Shown here in pieces: positions 36,521 to 44,379 of a stretch of DNA of 64,000 bases. A program made the position numbers and the translations under genes. Every line of letters starts with the position of its first letter. The first letter of the stretch is position 1. Under the pieces are notes generated by a model. That model saw only the letters and a list, made by a program, of their open reading frames with translations, ran no database searches and had not been told where the DNA came from. Source of the stretch: Neobacillus drentensis (lineage in GTDB: Bacteria > Bacillota > Bacilli > Bacillales > Cytobacillaceae); assembly GCF_021560175.1 (NCBI RefSeq), contig NZ_CP091110.1, forward strand, positions 1,416,001 to 1,480,000. The letters are read 5' to 3'.

Positions 36521-36597
36521 AGTATGCGTCAAGAAAGTGCATACTTGTTTCGGGATTCATCTGACTATATAATACGTTCAAAACCAAGTAAAGGCGG
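36521..36597 (+). promoter_or_regulatory. HxlR-type operator and promoter upstream of ccdA (duplicate of 39219-39297)
   Basis: AGTATG (36521-36526) and CATACT (36540-36545) form an inverted repeat with 13 bases between. It overlaps TTGTTT (36545-36550) and is followed by TATAAT at 36568-36573 (17-base spacer). The block through CCAAGTAAAGG is a near copy of the promoter between hxlR and the sirtuin operon. It should place ccdA under the same regulator. Confidence 0.75.
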
Positions 36598-36737
36598 GGG
36601 AAGAGAAGGAGAAAAAATAGGCATCTTTGGATTTCGACAATTCCGGATACGATTACCCATAATCAATTTAAAGTGTATATCACCATTAGTTTAAGCAGGT
36701 TATGTTTAGAAATAATAGGATTATAGGGGGAGATTTA

Positions 36738-37460
36738 TTGACTGAAATTACAATATGGGTCGCATTTGCAGGAGGATTATTAGCATTTATTTCTCCTTGC
36801 TGCCTACCTTTATATCCATCGTTTATCTCTTATATTACTGGTGTAACAGTGGGAGAAATAAAAAATCAGCAAAGTCATTCTAATACTAGAAAAATAGTCC
36901 TATTACATTCTATTTATTTTTCAATCGGATTTACAATCGTTTATTTTGCATTAGGTTTTTCAGCGAGTTTCTTCGGGAAAATTTTTTCTGACTATAAGGA
37001 TTTAATAAGAATGCTAGGTGGCATTTTTCTGATAGTAATGGGAACGTTTATGTTAGAAATTTTCAAACCAAGTTTTTTAATGAAGGAGCACCGCTTCCAA
37101 TATACCAAAAAGAAAGTGGGATTTTTAAATTCAGTTATTGTGGGAATTATTTTCGGAGCAGGGTGGTCTCCTTGCATAGGACCTATTTTTGGGGCAATTA
37201 TGTATGCTAATATTATGTATCCTACACAAACCTTTTTTAATATTGCTGCCTATTCATTGGGGTTCTGTATCCCATTTATAATAATGGCGTTTTTCATCAG
37301 CAAGACAAAAATAATATTAAAATATTCAGCGTTACTAATGAAAATCGGTGGCGTTTTAATGATTCTCATTGGATTAATGATATTTTTTGATAAAATGACA
37401 TACATAACTATATGGGGTTCCCAAATACAGTATTTTTTTGAGGAAATGCTCAGCAAATAA
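36738..37460 (+). CDS. ccdA: CcdA-type cytochrome c biogenesis / thiol-reducing membrane protein
   Basis: About 240 residues with six membrane helices. Redox cysteines occur in LAFISPCCLPLYPSF and GAGWSPCIGPI, the two CcdA positions. It passes electrons from cytoplasmic thioredoxin across the membrane to ResA-like partners. TTG 36738 with AGGGGG upstream matches the CcdA N-terminus; an ATG at 36702 in frame lacks a good ribosome site. Its partner gene just upstream carries a nonsense codon. The promoter at 36521 is a copy of the HxlR-controlled one. Confidence 0.9.
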   Translation: MTEITIWVAFAGGLLAFISPCCLPLYPSFISYITGVTVGEIKNQQSHSNTRKIVLLHSIYFSIGFTIVYFALGFSASFFGKIFSDYKDLIRMLGGIFLIVMGTFMLEIFKPSFLMKEHRFQYTKKKVGFLNSVIVGIIFGAGWSPCIGPIFGAIMYANIMYPTQTFFNIAAYSLGFCIPFIIMAFFISKTKIILKYSALLMKIGGVLMILIGLMIFFDKMTYITIWGSQIQYFFEEMLSK

Positions 37461-37564: not shown

Positions 37565-38131
37565 CTACAAGGTAGTTTTAACTTTTTGCTGCAGGAATTC
37601 GTCGGTCGTAATTACATTAGCATACATACCGTTAAGTGCACTGACAAACGCATAGTGAACCTGTTCAGCTGGTACGACCTTATCTTGATAAGATAAGTCC
37701 CTTGTTGCACATGCATCTTCTATAAGTGTGGTTTCAAAGCCTAAATCCACTGCAGCTCTAACAGTTGCATCAATACACATATGTGTCATCATACCTACAA
37801 CCACTACCTTGGTTACTCCTTTTTCTTTTAATTTGCTTTCTAATTCAGTCTTTAAAAAGCTGTTAGGAAAATGTTTTCTAATAAGACTTTCATGTTCTAA
37901 TGGTAGAACACTTTCATGTAGTTGAACTCCCTCGGTATCTGGGAGAAAGAAACCTAACTCTGGGTTACTTGCGATATGCTGGACATGAAAAATATGATCT
38001 TTGTTATTCTGTCTAAACCATTCAAGAACTTTTGCAGCATTAGCGGCTGCTTTTTCAGGGTTGCTTAATTTCATCTTTCCATTTGGAAAATAGTCATTTT
38101 GAATATCGACAATGATTAAAGCTGTGCTCAT
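37565..38131 (-). CDS. Isochorismatase-family cysteine hydrolase
   Basis: 188 residues. The catalytic triad of the family is visible: Asp9 (IIVDIQND), Lys86 (RKHFPNSF) and Cys119 (MMTHMCIDAT), the last followed by the usual TVRAAVDLGF helix. Members hydrolyse amides or ethers such as nicotinamide, N-carbamoyl compounds or isochorismate; the substrate here is unknown. ATG 38131 follows GAGGTG; the GTG at 38140 lies inside that site. It is divergent from an Lrp regulator 118 bases away. Confidence 0.9.
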   Translation of the reverse strand: MSTALIIVDIQNDYFPNGKMKLSNPEKAAANAAKVLEWFRQNNKDHIFHVQHIASNPELGFFLPDTEGVQLHESVLPLEHESLIRKHFPNSFLKTELESKLKEKGVTKVVVVGMMTHMCIDATVRAAVDLGFETTLIEDACATRDLSYQDKVVPAEQVHYAFVSALNGMYANVITTDEFLQQKVKTTL

Positions 38132-38249
38132 TTGTTTCACCTCATTTAAAGATTAAGTACAATAAAATAATAAATAATATTTTGATTTTTATCGATACTT
38201 TGATGAAACACTTTTTGATTAAATGATTTCACGGTGAAAGGAATTTATA

Positions 38250-38696
38250 ATGGATATCGATCAAATTGATTTTCAAATTCTCAGGTTACTAACCGAAAAT
38301 TCACGTGTCCAATGGAAGGACTTAGGCGAAAAAATTCATATGACGGGTCAAGCAGTAGGAAACCGTATTAGAAAACTTGAAGATAGTGGTGTCATTAAAG
38401 CCTACTCACTAATAATCGATGAAATGAAGCTGGGGCTGATCTTTACAGCGTTTGTCATTGTTCATATGAAATCAGCAAATCATGATGCTTTTATTCGGTT
38501 TATTAAAGATCGAAAAGAGGTAGTTGAAGCTCACCGAGTATCTGGGCAAGGCTGTTACCATTTAAAACTAAAAGTTAAATCCCAAGAACAATTGAATCAA
38601 ATTCTTAATAAACTTCTCGATCATGGGAACTATAGTTTAAATCTGTCCATACAAGAGATTAAACAACAACACTCTTGGACTAGCACATTACAATAA
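38250..38696 (+). CDS. Lrp/AsnC-family transcriptional regulator
   Basis: 148 residues with HTH (SRVQWKDLGEKIHMTGQAVGNRI, about 18-40) and RAM domain. GAAAGGAA precedes the ATG. It is a clear paralogue of the protein at 21765, with the same LGEK..HMTG helix and VSGQGCYHLKLK loop. It also lies divergent from a small hydrolase gene and may regulate it. Confidence 0.92.
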   Translation: MDIDQIDFQILRLLTENSRVQWKDLGEKIHMTGQAVGNRIRKLEDSGVIKAYSLIIDEMKLGLIFTAFVIVHMKSANHDAFIRFIKDRKEVVEAHRVSGQGCYHLKLKVKSQEQLNQILNKLLDHGNYSLNLSIQEIKQQHSWTSTLQ

Positions 38697-38840: not shown

Positions 38841-39200
38841 TTACTTTTCTTTATTATGCTCTCCCCACTGGCACATTTCCTGAATAATAGGCCAGAGAGT
38901 TTGCCCTTTTTCAGTAAGGCTGTATTCGACCTTTGGAGGAATTTGTGGATATTCCTTACGATGAACTAAACCATCGTTCTGCATTTCCTTTAAGGTAGAA
39001 CTGAGTGTTTTATAGGTTATCTTCCCTAGCATACGCTGAAGTTCATTATAGCGGACTGTACCGTTCCTTGATAAATGGTAAATAATTAGCAGTTTCCATT
39101 TACCGTTGATAATGGAGAGTGTATAGCCAAAAAAAGGCTCCTGGCTTTCAGAAATTTTCTCGTTTCTATCAGACATATTAACATTGGACCTTTTTATCAT
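38841..39200 (-). CDS. HxlR-family (MarR-like winged helix) regulator
   Basis: 119 residues. The HxlR signature is present: INGKWKLLIIYHLS near residue 32, RYNELQRMLGKITYKTLSSTLKEM as recognition helix region, and YSLTEKGQTLWPII. AGGAGG lies 8 bases upstream of the ATG at 39200. Many HxlR proteins sense aldehydes, quinones or disulfide stress. It is divergent from the sirtuin operon, and the AGTATG-N13-CATACT palindrome between them is its likely operator. Confidence 0.92.
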   Translation of the reverse strand: MIKRSNVNMSDRNEKISESQEPFFGYTLSIINGKWKLLIIYHLSRNGTVRYNELQRMLGKITYKTLSSTLKEMQNDGLVHRKEYPQIPPKVEYSLTEKGQTLWPIIQEMCQWGEHNKEK

Positions 39201-39218
39201 TACACTATCCTCCTAGAT

Positions 39219-39297
39219 AGTATGTGTCATAAAAGTGCATACTTGTTTGTAATTGTATATTGACTATATAATACATTTGAATCCAAGTAAAGGAGGA
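39219..39297 (+). promoter_or_regulatory. HxlR-type operator and promoter of the sirtuin operon
   Basis: AGTATG (39219-39224) and CATACT (39238-39243) form a palindrome with a 13-base centre that overlaps TTGTTT (39243-39248); TATAAT follows at 39267-39272. The transcribed leader begins near ATCCAAGTAAAGGAGG. The whole block recurs at 36521-36597. Confidence 0.78.
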
Positions 39298-39384
39298 TTC
39301 AAATATTTGTTTTCGAGAAAGTGCTATATATATAAAACAATATTTTTCAACTTTGAAAAAAATCATTAGGAGGACAAAGTAATT

Positions 39385-40260
39385 ATGTTATCACAACAAT
39401 ATCAAGACAATATAGACACATTACTAAAGAAAATAGAAGAAGCTGAGGCGATTGTGGTTGGTGGCGCTGCTGGGATGTCTGAGGCTATTGGACATAGTTT
39501 TTATCATACTGATGCGAATTTTCTAAAGCATTTTGGAAAATTTGCAGATAAATATGGTATTAAAAACCTTTTTAAGGGCTTTTATTACCGATTTTCTACA
39601 AGAGAAGAACGGTGGGCTTTTCTTGCAACTGAAATCAAATATATATATGATGCCGAAGCCGGTCGCCCATACCTTGACTTATTGCAACTACTTCAAGGCA
39701 AAAATTATTTCATTGTTACAACGAATCAAGACTCCCAGTTTTCCAAAACTTTCCCTGAAGAAAAAGTATCCCCAATTCAAGGCGATTTGCGTTATTTTCA
39801 ATGCGGCTCCCGTTGCCATGATCAGGTTTATTATAATAAAGAGCAAGTTGAGAACATGTATGCAAACATAGATGGAACCAGAATTCCAACAGAATTAATT
39901 CCATTATGTCCAAAGTGCGGGCAGGAAATGGAACCATGGGTGCGCTCTTATGTATTTCTGGAAGGTAGCTCTTACAGAAATGAATTAAGAAAATACAATG
40001 AGTTTCTTATAAAAAACAAAGATAAAAAGGTTCTCTTTCTGGAGTTAGGTGTGGGAACCATGACACCGATGTTCATCAAAGAACCCTTCTGGAACATGAC
40101 TTACAGTTGGCCGGATGCATACTACATTGCCATCAATCCAAAGGATGCATTGTTGCCAAGGGAACTGAAGGATAAGGGACTCGCCATTCATGAAGATATT
40201 GCTGTGGTATTACAAGATGCTTTGAACGAGAAAGCAAAAAGAGATACGGATATTGGATAA
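39385..40260 (+). CDS. Class-M-like sirtuin (SIR2 family NAD-dependent enzyme)
   Basis: 291 residues with a divergent sirtuin fold. The NAD motif is GGAAGMS (26-32) instead of GAGIS. TTNQD (112-116) replaces TQNID. Gln132 in IQGDLRYFQC stands where classical sirtuins have the catalytic His. The zinc cysteines are Cys140, Cys144, Cys175 and Cys178. These changes match the macrodomain-linked SirTM group, which ADP-ribosylates protein (for example a lipoylated GcvH-like carrier) rather than deacetylating. TAGGAGGA precedes the ATG. It is the first gene of an operon divergent from HxlR; no macrodomain, GcvH-L or LplA gene is beside it here. Confidence 0.85.
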   Translation: MLSQQYQDNIDTLLKKIEEAEAIVVGGAAGMSEAIGHSFYHTDANFLKHFGKFADKYGIKNLFKGFYYRFSTREERWAFLATEIKYIYDAEAGRPYLDLLQLLQGKNYFIVTTNQDSQFSKTFPEEKVSPIQGDLRYFQCGSRCHDQVYYNKEQVENMYANIDGTRIPTELIPLCPKCGQEMEPWVRSYVFLEGSSYRNELRKYNEFLIKNKDKKVLFLELGVGTMTPMFIKEPFWNMTYSWPDAYYIAINPKDALLPRELKDKGLAIHEDIAVVLQDALNEKAKRDTDIG

Positions 40261-40336
40261 GTACAGAGCAATCCGGCTTCGCATATGTAAGGAATAACTA
40301 ATTCAAAATCAAAATTTTATAAAATTGGAGGATCAT

Positions 40337-41182
40337 ATGGAAGAGAAGTATCAAAAGGTTTTAAGCAAAATCAAGGAGGCTGACAGCATTGTCATTGGCG
40401 CAAGTAACGGCCTCGCCATTTCGGAAGGTTATAATATCTTTGCAGAGGATTCTTCCTACCTGGAACATTTTGGTGATTTTCGTAAAAAGTATGGTTTTCG
40501 TAGTATCCTACAGGGATCTTTTTATCCATATCCTTCCGAGGAAGAAAAGTGGGCATTTTTCAGCCGTATGTACGCCTACTTTTTAAACAACAAGGAAGCT
40601 AGTCCTGTCATGAAGAACCTTTATGAACTGGTGAAGGATAAAAATTATTTTGTGGTTACCTCTAATACAGATTCTCATTTTACACTGGCAGGATTTCAAA
40701 AGGAACGCCTTTTCGAAATAGAGGGCAATAGTCGGTATTTGCAATGTTCTCATGGTTGCCATAATCGAATTTACCCAGGTGACGTAATATTGAGTAAAAT
40801 GGCCCAACACCAAGAGAATGGAAAAGTCCCTCTGGATCTTATTCCTAAGTGTCCAGAGTGCGACGGCCTAATGCAAGTCCATGTCGAAGTCGATCGGAAT
40901 TTTCTAAGGGGTGAGGCATGGCAAGCCAACTTTGATGCTTATCAGAATTTTATCGATAATGCTCATGGCAAAAAATTAGTCCTGCTGGAATTAGGCGTAG
41001 GTGCTAGAAATCAATTGATTAAAGCCCCGTTTATGAATTTAACTAGCTTAGAGGAAAATGCAACCTATATTACTTTTAATAGAGGATCCAAGCTTTTTAT
41101 TCCAGATGTAATTGCTTCTAAATCCATTGGGATCGACGGTAATATTGCGGAAGTGTTAGAGCATTTGGTGCAGATGAAATAA
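40337..41182 (+). CDS. Second divergent sirtuin-like protein (His/Gln replaced by Glu)
   Basis: 281 residues, clearly related in plan to the preceding gene. NAD motif GASNGLAIS (21-29), SNTDSHF (109-115), EIEGNSRYLQC with Glu129 at the catalytic His/Gln site, and zinc cysteines Cys137, Cys141, Cys172 and Cys175. TTGGAGGA lies 4 bases before ATG 40337. The replacement of the active residue suggests a changed chemistry, an inactive regulatory subunit or NAD sensing. The gene starts 76 bases after the first sirtuin. Confidence 0.82.
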   Translation: MEEKYQKVLSKIKEADSIVIGASNGLAISEGYNIFAEDSSYLEHFGDFRKKYGFRSILQGSFYPYPSEEEKWAFFSRMYAYFLNNKEASPVMKNLYELVKDKNYFVVTSNTDSHFTLAGFQKERLFEIEGNSRYLQCSHGCHNRIYPGDVILSKMAQHQENGKVPLDLIPKCPECDGLMQVHVEVDRNFLRGEAWQANFDAYQNFIDNAHGKKLVLLELGVGARNQLIKAPFMNLTSLEENATYITFNRGSKLFIPDVIASKSIGIDGNIAEVLEHLVQMK

Positions 41183-41216
41183 GCTGTTTATTAGAAAACA
41201 GAGGAGGGAATGAATG

Positions 41217-41795
41217 ATGTTTCTAGCGAATGTTCTGAATGATCCTGCCTGTCAACCAATCAAAAAGGTTTATGAACGATGGTTTACATTCATGGAAGAA
41301 ACGATAGAGTTTTGGCTTCCGAATAGTGTATGGCATACGAAAACCCATTGTGCTCGCGTGCTGCTCCTAGCACTCCTCATCGGACATCAAAAAGGTCAGA
41401 GTGAGGAGGAGATGGATGCACTTGGAATGGCGGCTGTTTTCCATGATTCCCGCCGCCTTGATGATGGGATTGATAAGGGGCATGGTGGCCGTGCGGCAGA
41501 GTATTACAAAGATTATTGCTGTGCACACGATTTGCCGTATGATGAGAAAACCTACTACATCACCTATTACCATGACCAGGATGATTCGCTAGGTTTGTCT
41601 GAGATTGCAAAGTCCCCTAGTTTAAGTGAAAGGGCCGTGCTGGTGTATCAGATTTTCAAGGATGCCGACGCACTGGATCGCTTCCGTCTGGGCTCTGATG
41701 CTTTGAATGTAAATTTTCTTCGGACAAAAGAAGCACATGGACTTGTTGACTTTGCAAAATATCTCTTACAGAAAAGTAGAGAAACTAATTCGTGA
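41217..41795 (+). CDS. HD-domain metal-dependent phosphohydrolase
   Basis: 192 residues. HD landmarks are WHTKTHCARVLLLA (first His), AAVFHDSRRLDDG (HD pair) and FKDADALDRFR (final Asp), as in small nucleotide phosphohydrolases. AGGAGGG (41202-41208) fits ATG 41217 with 8 bases; ATG 41214 is also possible. It starts 34 bases after the second sirtuin stop and is surely in the same operon. The substrate could be a nucleotide or an ADP-ribose-like molecule; this is inference from the NAD-related neighbours. Confidence 0.85.
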   Translation: MFLANVLNDPACQPIKKVYERWFTFMEETIEFWLPNSVWHTKTHCARVLLLALLIGHQKGQSEEEMDALGMAAVFHDSRRLDDGIDKGHGGRAAEYYKDYCCAHDLPYDEKTYYITYYHDQDDSLGLSEIAKSPSLSERAVLVYQIFKDADALDRFRLGSDALNVNFLRTKEAHGLVDFAKYLLQKSRETNS

Positions 41796-41868
41796 AAATA
41801 TAGAGAGGAAAAATCTACTTATCTTGTGCAAGTCCGAGAGTATTTTGCTGGCTTAGGAGGTAAGAATT

Positions 41869-42007
41869 ATGAATAAGTATATCGATGATAGTTTCGCTCC
41901 TTTTATGGGAAGAGTACAAACGTTCTTTAAATCCAGCCGAATATACTTACATTTACGGACCTCGGATAAACAATGGTAAACCATATGAAACTATGCTTCC
42001 ATACTGA
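41869..42007 (+). pseudogene. Probable internally deleted nicotinate phosphoribosyltransferase remnant
   Basis: A strong TTAGGAGG site precedes ATG 41869, whose frame starts MNKYIDDSFA, like the N-terminus of nicotinate phosphoribosyltransferases (PncB). In another frame the same stretch reads SLLLWEEYKRSLNPAEY, like the C-terminal helix of those enzymes, and stops at 42005-42007. The two ends thus lie within about 140 bases, with the roughly 440 codons between them gone. The motifs are short and recalled from memory, so the assignment is tentative. It would have been the fourth gene of the sirtuin operon. Confidence 0.45.
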
Positions 42008-42049
42008 AATTATTGAATAAACACGAAAACAACTAGGTCGGTGAAATAG

Positions 42050-42271
42050 ATGATTGATTTTTTACAGCGAATTAATGAACTAGCTAAAAAGCAGCGTGAG
42101 GAAGGTTTAACCAATGCTGAAAAAGTTGAGCAACAGGTGCTTCGAGAAGATTATTTACGTGAAATACGTGGACAAGTGATCCACACTTTCTCAGGGATGA
42201 AGGTGCTGGATCCACTTGGAAATGATGTAACACCTGAAAAGGTCCGCAATTTAAAAACAAAAGATTTATAG
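42050..42271 (+). CDS. DUF896 family small protein (YnzC-like)
   Basis: 73 residues, two helices in a hairpin with the family pattern INELAKKQREEGLTNAEK and LREDYLREIRGQV. Conserved in Bacillaceae; YnzC is co-transcribed with SOS genes in Bacillus subtilis, but the biochemical role is unknown. GGTCGGTG lies before the ATG. It precedes hslO by 26 bases. Confidence 0.92.
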   Translation: MIDFLQRINELAKKQREEGLTNAEKVEQQVLREDYLREIRGQVIHTFSGMKVLDPLGNDVTPEKVRNLKTKDL

Positions 42272-42297: not shown

Positions 42298-43179
42298 GTG
42301 AAAGATTATTTAGTAAAAGCCATTGCTCATAATAAACAAGTGCGTGCATATGCCGCTATTACAACTGAAACAATTGAAGAAGCAAGACGCCGCCATGATA
42401 TGCAAGCGGTCGCTTCAGTGGTCCTGGGACGTTCCATGACAGCAGGAGTCATACTTGGCGCCATGCTAAAAGGTGTAGAAAAACTAACCATAAAAATGAA
42501 TGGAGGCGGACCAATTGGAACCATCCTAGTAGATGCAAATGCCAAGGGTGAAGTAAGAGGGTATGTTTCAAATCCCCATGCGTACGCAGGGCTGAATCAG
42601 CAAGGTTTACTTGATATTAAATCGGTGGTGGGAACAAATGGAATCCTTTCCGTTACCAAAGATATAGGATTGAAACACCCCTTCATTGGCCAGGTTCCTA
42701 TTGAATCGGGTGAAATCGGTGAGGATTTTGCCTCTTATCTACTGCATTCAGAACAAGTAGCATCCTCTGTTGGTGTAGGTGTACTAGTAAACCCAGACTT
42801 AACCATTCAAGCTGCTGGTGGTTTTATTATTCAGCTTATGCCGAACACAGAAGAAGAGACTATTCGCGTAATTGAAGAACGTTTACAAACGATGCCTTCC
42901 ATTTCATCGATGATTGGGCAAGGTATAACACCAGATCAAATTCTGAAACAATTACTAGGTGAAGAAAATGTCAGCATACTTGAAACAATCCCAGTTCAAT
43001 TTAGATGTGAATGCTCTAGAAATAGAATCTCGAATGGTATTTTAAGTCTAGGAAGCGAAGAAATTCAAGATATGATAGAGACGGAAGGACAGGCTGAAGC
43101 GCAATGCCATTTTTGTAATGAAATCTACTTATATAATAAAGAAGATTTAGAAACTTTATTAAAAGCGGACATTTCATAA
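42298..43179 (+). CDS. hslO: Hsp33 redox-regulated chaperone
   Basis: 293 residues. Chaperone domain (1-230) and C-terminal redox switch with four zinc cysteines in the CxC (RCECSRNR) and CxxC (CHFCNEIY) motifs. Oxidation releases zinc and activates holdase function. GTG start with AGGAGATTTAG upstream. Both motif pairs are intact. Its position near thiol and NAD stress genes fits oxidative stress. Confidence 0.96.

Positions 43180-43200: not shown

Positions 43201-44379
<1,179 letters not shown>

What the first reader, a model, noticed from the sequence alone, without database searches (positions are those of the whole stretch)
38841..42007. HxlR-controlled double sirtuin plus HD hydrolase locus, a candidate new NAD-dependent stress system
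Two divergent class-M-like sirtuins in tandem, an HD phosphohydrolase and the remains of what looks like a nicotinate phosphoribosyltransferase form one unit opposite an HxlR regulator. Known SirTM operons contain a macrodomain, GcvH-L and LplA2; none is here. The set suggests reversible ADP-ribosylation or NAD consumption with its own hydrolase and NAD supply, either for redox stress or for defence.
Basis: partly seen in the sequence, partly recalled or inferred. Interest (0 to 1): 0.8.

Follow-up and report, generated by a model that had tools for sequence, protein, structure and literature searches.

The report
Paired sirtuins with NAD-recycling stress genes
A Bacillus relative carries two sister sirtuin genes that travel together in every complete copy examined, are fused in some microbes, and often sit beside genes that rebuild NAD under one redox-type switch; it looks like an undescribed two-part NAD-using stress system, although no activity has been measured.

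Summary
HxlR, two class-M-like sirtuins (SirA, SirB), an HD hydrolase and a collapsed nicotinate phosphoribosyltransferase are there, plus a nicotinamidase remnant. In 25 unique loci with a full SirB, SirA is adjacent in 25 and a macrodomain was found near none. SirA keeps the class M residues Asn118, Gln137 and Arg192. SirB has Glu at 137 (25/25 loci; 118/118 database proteins) and mostly Glu at 192 (23/25; 116/118). SirA and SirB are sister clades; metagenomes encode SirB-SirA fusions and one SirA-SirB fusion, so they probably form one enzyme. A 27-base operator fronts HxlR/SirA and a CcdA gene, its only two sites in the genome. Intact relatives add PncB and PncA, some NadD and NadE, and second copies of Hsp33 and MnmA. 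Best reading: a redox-controlled heteromeric sirtuin with its own NAD recycling, probably ADP-ribosylating an unknown target. Chemistry, target, inducer and HD role are inferred. Defence is not supported. The literature searches run found no description.

The parts
38841..39200 (-). HxlR-type regulator; single Cys near the C-terminus (MCQWGE), no N-terminal Cys
   Evidence: PF01638 E 8e-34; best NCBIfam match RrpA redox regulator, 136 bits, below its cut-off of 185; Cys conserved in 17 of 17 readable rows, window included (the L114 row was out of frame there), and in L114
39219..39245 (+). Operator AGTATGYGTCNNAAAAGTGCATACTTG between HxlR and SirA; by reading, TTGTTT-18-TATAAT overlaps it
   Evidence: 0 mismatches, mean 0 in 100 shuffles; 2 sites in the 6.26 Mb genome at up to 3 mismatches; found in relatives
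36521..36547 (+). Second operator, upstream of CcdA
   Evidence: 1 mismatch; L008 also has one before a CcdA fragment
36702..37460 (+). CcdA/DsbD-type membrane thiol-disulphide protein, putative regulon member
   Evidence: PF02683 E 3e-13; within 6.5 kb of SirB in 6 loci, 4 of them full
39385..40260 (+). SirA: class-M-like sirtuin keeping Asn118, Gln137 and Arg192; GVGxMTP loop
   Evidence: 5a3a E 1.7e-45; residues; clade support 100/95
40325..41182 (+). SirB: diverged sirtuin, Asn118 kept, Glu at 137 and at 192, GVGxRNQ loop, GASNGLAISEG in place of the GxGAGMS stretch; likely start ATG 40337
41214..41795 (+). HD-superfamily hydrolase with invariant H41, H45, H77-D78, H90, H120, D150, D152
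   Evidence: alignment A1 of 26 rows; model pLDDT 91; HD-fold matches
41869..41942 (+). Collapsed pncB2: first codons and a C-terminal piece only; right edge approximate
   Evidence: matched by eye
41943..42017 (+). Remnant of pncA2 (last 14%), with a stop
   Evidence: 76% identity to L009 PncA2; frame 0
42050..42271 (+). DUF896 protein, near SirB in 9 loci
   Evidence: PF05979 E 4e-26
42298..43179 (+). Second Hsp33 (redox chaperone)
   Evidence: 87% to the L008 locus copy; the genome's other Hsp33 is 61%
43282..44379 (+). Second MnmA (tRNA 2-thiouridylase), possibly impaired here
   Evidence: 87% to the L009 locus copy; the genome's other MnmA is 77%; SGRVDSS in place of SGGVDSS and 6 residues shorter than L009's
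37565..38140 (-). Isochorismatase-family hydrolase, conserved neighbour in 13 loci; membership in the unit uncertain
   Evidence: PF00857 E 4e-37
38250..38696 (+). Lrp/AsnC regulator paired with the isochorismatase

Best explanation
SirA and SirB form one heteromeric sirtuin. HxlR sits on an operator between itself and SirA and lets go under thiol or electrophile stress. The pair then uses NAD+: SirA, which keeps the residues class M sirtuins need, transfers ADP-ribose to an unknown target; SirB, with Glu in place of Gln137 and Arg192, binds NAD or the product and activates or aims SirA. Nicotinamide, the by-product, is cleared by PncA and returned to NAD by PncB (and NadD, NadE where present). 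The HD protein hydrolyses the nucleotide product or the ADP-ribosyl adduct, in the place held by the macrodomain elsewhere. Hsp33-2, MnmA2 and CcdA repair thiol damage. Shown by sequence: constant pairing, fusions, residue changes, shared operator, linked NAD and redox genes, no macrodomain nearby. Inferred: chemistry, target, inducer, complex, HD role.
For: SirA beside SirB in 25 of 25 unique loci with a full SirB; no macrodomain within 3 kb in 24 of 24, none found in the 25th, L154. Clades 100/95 and 100/100, sisters at 99/98. Fusions: 13 SirB-SirA, 1 SirA-SirB. Glu137 in 25/25 and 118/118, Glu192 in 23/25 and 116/118 (the two sets overlap); in SpySirTM changing Asn118, Gln137 or Arg192 greatly lowers transfer (PMC4518038, passages). 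Operator in 22 of 26 SirB loci, two sites in the window's genome. At least one NAD-salvage gene or remnant in 17 of 26 (my count), of two kinds: PncB of L015 and L006 is only 45% identical to the other; NadD and NadE in L014, NadE in L015. G370 carries this unit and a separate GcvH-L/Macro/SirTM/LplA2 operon. Precedent for a sirtuin pair active mainly together: FAM118A/B (PMC12700824, passages).
Against: No activity, complex or expression data. The window copy has lost PncB2 and PncA2 and its MnmA2 looks damaged, so the salvage half is dispensable here; the genome has another pncA-pncB. HD was not found in 5 of 26 loci (L011, L013, L020, L134, L154) and HxlR not in 6 (L006, L018, L020, L021, L134, L154). 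In 12 of 13 SirB-SirA fusions the SirB half has no Cys, hence no zinc site, which fits a non-catalytic SirB. HxlR lacks the N-terminal Cys of the YodB/HypR type (recalled), so redox sensing is unproven. HD fold matches are tied among many HD families.
Confidence: 0.5

Rival explanations
1. The pair is a regulated NADase or makes a nucleotide signal rather than modifying a protein; SirB completes or controls the active site, the HD protein degrades the signal, and the salvage genes refill NAD.
For: FAM118A/B, two sirtuin paralogues, are each very weak and process NAD markedly better together; HD fold matches include nucleotide phosphohydrolases and cyclic-dinucleotide esterases; salvage genes fit large NAD use.
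Against: SirA keeps the full class M transfer set; no defence-family hit for SirA, SirB or HD.
Confidence: 0.2
2. The pair ADP-ribosylates a small or reactive molecule: a detoxification enzyme induced by an HxlR that senses electrophiles.
For: HxlR regulators answer formaldehyde or thiol-reactive compounds in other bacteria (abstracts in the listing); an MBL-fold hydrolase is near SirB in 7 of 26 loci and an isochorismatase-type hydrolase in 13.
Against: The characterised relatives modify a protein; nothing in the sequence points to a small substrate.
Confidence: 0.12
3. SirB is an inactive leftover of a SirA duplication and the unit is an ordinary stress operon with one working sirtuin.
For: SirB lost Gln137 and Arg192; 12 of 13 fused SirB halves lost all cysteines.
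Against: Glu137 is invariant over 118 database proteins and Glu192 nearly so; SirB is kept with SirA in every complete locus and fused in both orders.
Confidence: 0.1
4. Anti-phage or abortive-infection system.
For: SIR2 domains are common in defence (recalled); the unit is patchy (4 of 61 genomes of the genus) and occurs on two megaplasmids.
Against: No PADLOC hit for the sirtuins or HD; HxlR has weak winged-helix matches only. Regulator, Hsp33, MnmA, CcdA and salvage genes are unusual for defence (recalled).
Confidence: 0.06

Closest known systems
SirTM / zinc-macrodomain operons (class M sirtuins)
   Same: Fold; Asn118, Gln137, Arg192 in SirA; HxlR genes also lie near some macrodomain-linked SirTM genes (19 of 62 loci).
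   Different: No macrodomain, GcvH-L or LplA2; two sirtuins; SirB with Glu at 137 and 192; GVGxMTP or GVGxRNQ in place of GVGx[NT]TP; HD or cupin partner and NAD salvage genes.
FAM118A/FAM118B sirtuin pair (vertebrates)
   Same: Two sirtuin paralogues that act together (PMC12700824, passages).
   Different: Closer to ThsA-type sirtuins, active-site His present, filaments; no sequence relation was tested here.
Pnc1 and Npt1 with Sir2 in yeast (recalled)
   Same: Nicotinamide removal and NAD salvage serve a sirtuin.
   Different: Separate genes and an ordinary deacetylase; here the salvage genes lie in the sirtuin cluster.
YqeK and other HD phosphohydrolases
   Same: HD fold and a similar set of invariant His/Asp (the YqeK set is recalled).

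Membership tests
Class M sirtuin (SirTM), SirA | Catalytic His replaced by Gln (QG), with Asn118 and Arg192 | tested here: met
   N and Q in 32 of 32 SirA rows, R in 31 and one gap
Class M sirtuin (SirTM), SirA | GVGx[NT]TP loop | tested here: not met
   GVGxMTP in 30 of 32, one GVGEMSP, one gap; the 80 of 84 single-sirtuin rows whose type was printed all have GxGx[NT]TP
Class M sirtuin (SirTM), SirA | Linkage to a zinc macrodomain | tested here: not met
   0 of 24 unique pair loci within 3 kb, against 71 of 81 unique single Gln-type loci (duplicates and the lone L007 SirA removed by me). One Macro gene in the genome, elsewhere; by reading it lacks the N-terminal extension
Class M sirtuin (SirTM), SirB | Gln137 and Arg192 | tested here: not met
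   Glu137 in 25/25 and 118/118; Glu192 in 23/25 and 116/118
Class M sirtuin (SirTM), SirB | Sirtuin fold of the SirTM type | tested here: met
Extended SirTM operon | GcvH-L and LplA2 next door | tested here: not met
   neither found within 6.5 kb of SirB in the 27 rows (26 unique; some contigs are short); a partial LLM match in L130 only
Class M activity | Protein ADP-ribosyl transfer | not testable with these tools
   needs an assay
HD phosphohydrolase | H...HD...D motif and fold | tested here: met
YqeK Ap4A hydrolase | Sequence and structural membership | tested here: inconclusive
   no YqeK hit; fold match tied
Known anti-phage system | Match to PADLOC models | tested here: not met
   0 families for SirA, SirB, HD; weak winged-helix matches for HxlR

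The most novel reading that the evidence does not exclude
A two-chain sirtuin in which the second chain supplies a conserved Glu pair and a new role, with an HD hydrolase (or a cupin) in the eraser place of the macrodomain and a complete nicotinamide-to-NAD recycling line in the same cluster: a self-fuelled ADP-ribose signalling system for thiol stress.
Probability: 0.3. Interest if true: 0.9.

Novelty: new variant of a known kind. Interest (0 to 1): 0.72.

Why it matters
Sirtuins are usually studied as single enzymes. An old pair with a fixed double residue change, fused in both orders and tied to NAD rebuilding, would add a heteromeric sirtuin class and make the question of what macrodomain-free class M relatives do directly testable. 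It also gives a regulator, an operator and a candidate regulon with which to look for the trigger.

Tried and rejected
Defence: no PADLOC hit for the sirtuins or HD. Phage origin: two distant phage records for SirB; no relative of P0217 in viral contigs; one 23% match for A3, which is a Gln-type sirtuin next to a macrodomain. The HD protein was not searched in phages. Macrodomain elsewhere in the genome: one Macro gene, not of the zinc type by reading. HD as YqeK: no sequence hit. HD relatives on three other plasmids lie in larger proteins with unrelated neighbours; the 34% relative in G192 lies in a 462-residue frame among unrelated genes. Lone SirB: in a phylum sample 12 of 398 genomes matched A3 at 1e-50; besides the window's own, 10 of 11 read as Gln-type and the eleventh, G076, was unread there but Gln-type; 10 of the 11 have a macrodomain hit. 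Stenotrophomonas SirB (P0217, P0229) was seen in the protein database only; its neighbourhood was not fetched. No prediction of the SirA-SirB complex was run.

Duplicates that I removed before counting: L001, L002, L085, L088, L111 (window copies); L086, L089, L112 (= L114); L123 (= L126); L125, L127 (= L008); L124 (same sequence as L004); L113, L094, L091 (= L115, L117, L118). L021 (SirB fragment, SirA gone) is left out of the 25 and counted among the 26. L018 and L019 are two loci of one genome. The same protein can stand both in a locus and in the database set, so 25/25 and 118/118 overlap; the 118 are those under 330 residues of 120 listed, from 784 matches. Long branches meet in the tree (L114 with L134 in B, L020a with L134 in A), so places inside the clades are unsure. 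One search covered only 2 genomes and shows nothing.

Literature: all-terms searches gave 0 papers for sirtuin + nicotinamidase + nicotinate phosphoribosyltransferase + operon + HD domain, SirTM + HxlR, HxlR + Sir2 + nicotinate phosphoribosyltransferase, sirtuin + MnmA + Hsp33. Searches listed papers; no title or shown abstract describes the pair. PMC4518038, PMC11490716 and PMC12700824 were seen as passages, the rest as listings. The library is open-access only.
Full report

The unit elsewhere. One scan of 84,980 species genomes kept the best 80 of 183 SirB relatives. Seventeen (L003-L019) are 71-91% identical over nearly the whole length, L021 is a fragment at 83%, L020 is at 43%. Of the other 61 (L022-L082), all hold a single Gln-type sirtuin and 51 have a macrodomain hit within 3 kb. 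With the window, G370, G455, two megaplasmids, an L. plantarum plasmid and G890 there are 26 unique SirB loci, 25 with a full SirB. Within 6.5 kb of SirB these 26 have: SirA in 25 (a fragment in L006); HD in 21 (3 partial); HxlR in 20; PncB in 16 (3 partial), besides the window's scar; PncA2 in 11 (the window only a remnant) and a second PncA type in 2; MnmA in 12 (1 partial); DUF896 in 9; Hsp33 in 7 (3 partial); CcdA in 6 (2 partial); MBL-fold hydrolase in 7 (one duplicate row removed). The line HxlR, SirA, SirB, HD, PncB, PncA, DUF896, Hsp33, MnmA is complete in L008 and L126 and, by tblastn, in L129, where other genes lie between HxlR and SirA. L014 (Sporosarcina) adds NadD directly behind the operator and then NadE, which makes the nicotinamide-to-NAD path complete in one cluster. 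L015 (Clostridium) has another PncA, a PncB only 45% identical, and NadE. NAD salvage has thus been linked to the pair with at least two gene sets.

Accessory copies, not housekeeping genes. The window genome has a separate pncA-pncB, a separate MnmA (77% against 87% to the L009 copy) and a separate Hsp33 (61% against 87% to the L008 copy).

The pair. In one search all 36 Glu-type rows (24 unique loci) stood in tandem with a Gln-type sirtuin and none had a macrodomain within 3 kb. Of single Gln-type rows 74 of 85 had one; without three doubly fetched loci and the lone L007 SirA this is 71 of 81, and in the other ten none was detected. L154 adds a 25th pair without macrodomain hit. In the tree of 62 rows all 26 SirA rows form one clade (100/95), all 20 SirB rows another (100/100), and the two are sisters (99/98), apart from the 15 macrodomain-linked rows. 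The protein search with A3 gave 784 matches, 120 listed; 119 of these had a readable Glu and one did not fit the pattern. Among the 238 proteins listed exceed 400 residues: 13 read as SirB then SirA, P0254 as SirA then SirB, and five are shortened or partial (P0265, P0266, P0268, P0269, P0324). P0247 stands for 40 sequences and P0250 for 22 on 25 contigs, which speaks against assembly error. Fusion in both orders is strong indirect evidence of a physical complex. In 12 of the 13 SirB-SirA fusions the SirB half has no Cys at all, while 12 of 13 keep the Glu (P0255 was not readable); P0253 and P0254 keep the cysteines. SirB thus seems to keep its ligand pocket but not always the zinc module, which suits a regulatory or NAD-binding partner.

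Residues. Rack and colleagues report that Asn118, Gln137 and Arg192 are needed for transfer, that Gln137 contacts the ribose 3'-OH and Arg192, that a His at 137 also abolishes activity, and that GVGx[NT]TP is class-specific (PMC4518038, passages). SirA: N 32/32, Q 32/32, R 31/32 with one gap, loop GVGxMTP in 30. SirB: N 25/25, E 25/25 at 137, E 23/25 at 192 (P in two), loop mostly GVGxRNQ. Single sirtuins: N, Q, R in 84/84 rows, three loci being there twice. SirB therefore should not be called a class M transferase; the linked double change suggests a new role in the nicotinamide-ribose pocket.

Regulation. The site AGTATGYGTCNNAAAAGTGCATACTTG overlaps, by reading, the promoter between HxlR and SirA. 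AGTATGC and GCATACT stand as inverted arms in 13 of 18 regions looked at, not in the window's own. At up to 3 mismatches it occurs twice in the whole genome: here and 154 bases before CcdA. Of 26 SirB loci 22 have a site with at most 3 mismatches, G370 included; L020, L021, L134 and L154 have none. In 64 single-sirtuin loci the best match had 6 mismatches, in nine loci. The HxlR has one conserved Cys near its end. Whether it senses oxidants is unknown; the association with CcdA, Hsp33 and MnmA favours thiol stress.

Distribution. Patchy: HD in 4 of 61 genomes of the genus and 3 of 398 in the class sample; SirB at 1e-70 in 2 of 108 genomes of the family of G370; no Glu-type besides the window's own among 398 phylum genomes at 1e-50. 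It occurs on two megaplasmids. G370 has this unit and a separate GcvH-L operon, so the pair is not a decayed form of that operon.

Conclusion. None of the searches of an open-access library found them described.

Noticed in passing
L134:5157-7329; L154:7600-10549: SirA next to a SirB fused to a C-terminal cupin, on an L. plantarum plasmid typed as conjugative and, by reading, in G890, there directly after an MBL-fold hydrolase gene.
   Followed up: partly
L024, L042, L058, L068, L082 and others: HxlR genes lie near single SirTM genes (HxlR cluster in 19 of 62 loci), often with radical SAM, nitroreductase or DUF1848 genes; the HxlR proteins printed have an N-terminal Cys.
   Followed up: partly
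window:35862-36482: A TlpA/ResA-like thioredoxin gene interrupted by an in-frame stop, just before the second operator and CcdA.
   Followed up: no
window:43282-44379: The accessory MnmA has SGRVDSS in its PP-loop and is 6 residues shorter than the L009 copy, so it may be inactive.
   Followed up: partly
window:20867-28550: MBL-fold hydrolase with Lrp, then antiterminator, beta-glucoside PTS, BglA and MFS genes resemble the flank of the unit in L009 and partly in L114, hinting at a larger shared island.
   Followed up: no
L108, L109: Two sirtuins of small genomes with TAGNGFAQMEG, FG in place of QG and no Asn118; another diverged branch.
   Followed up: no
L015:17205-18139: A perfect HxlR operator stands before a DUF3786 gene about 6 kb from the Clostridium unit.
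   Followed up: no
L017:5783-6974; L019:5754-6957: Operator-like sites (2 mismatches) before genes of 311 and 315 residues; the L017 one is an MBL-fold protein with a lipoprotein-like N-terminus.
   Followed up: partly
L149: A viral-collection contig carries a Gln-type sirtuin next to a macrodomain.
   Followed up: no
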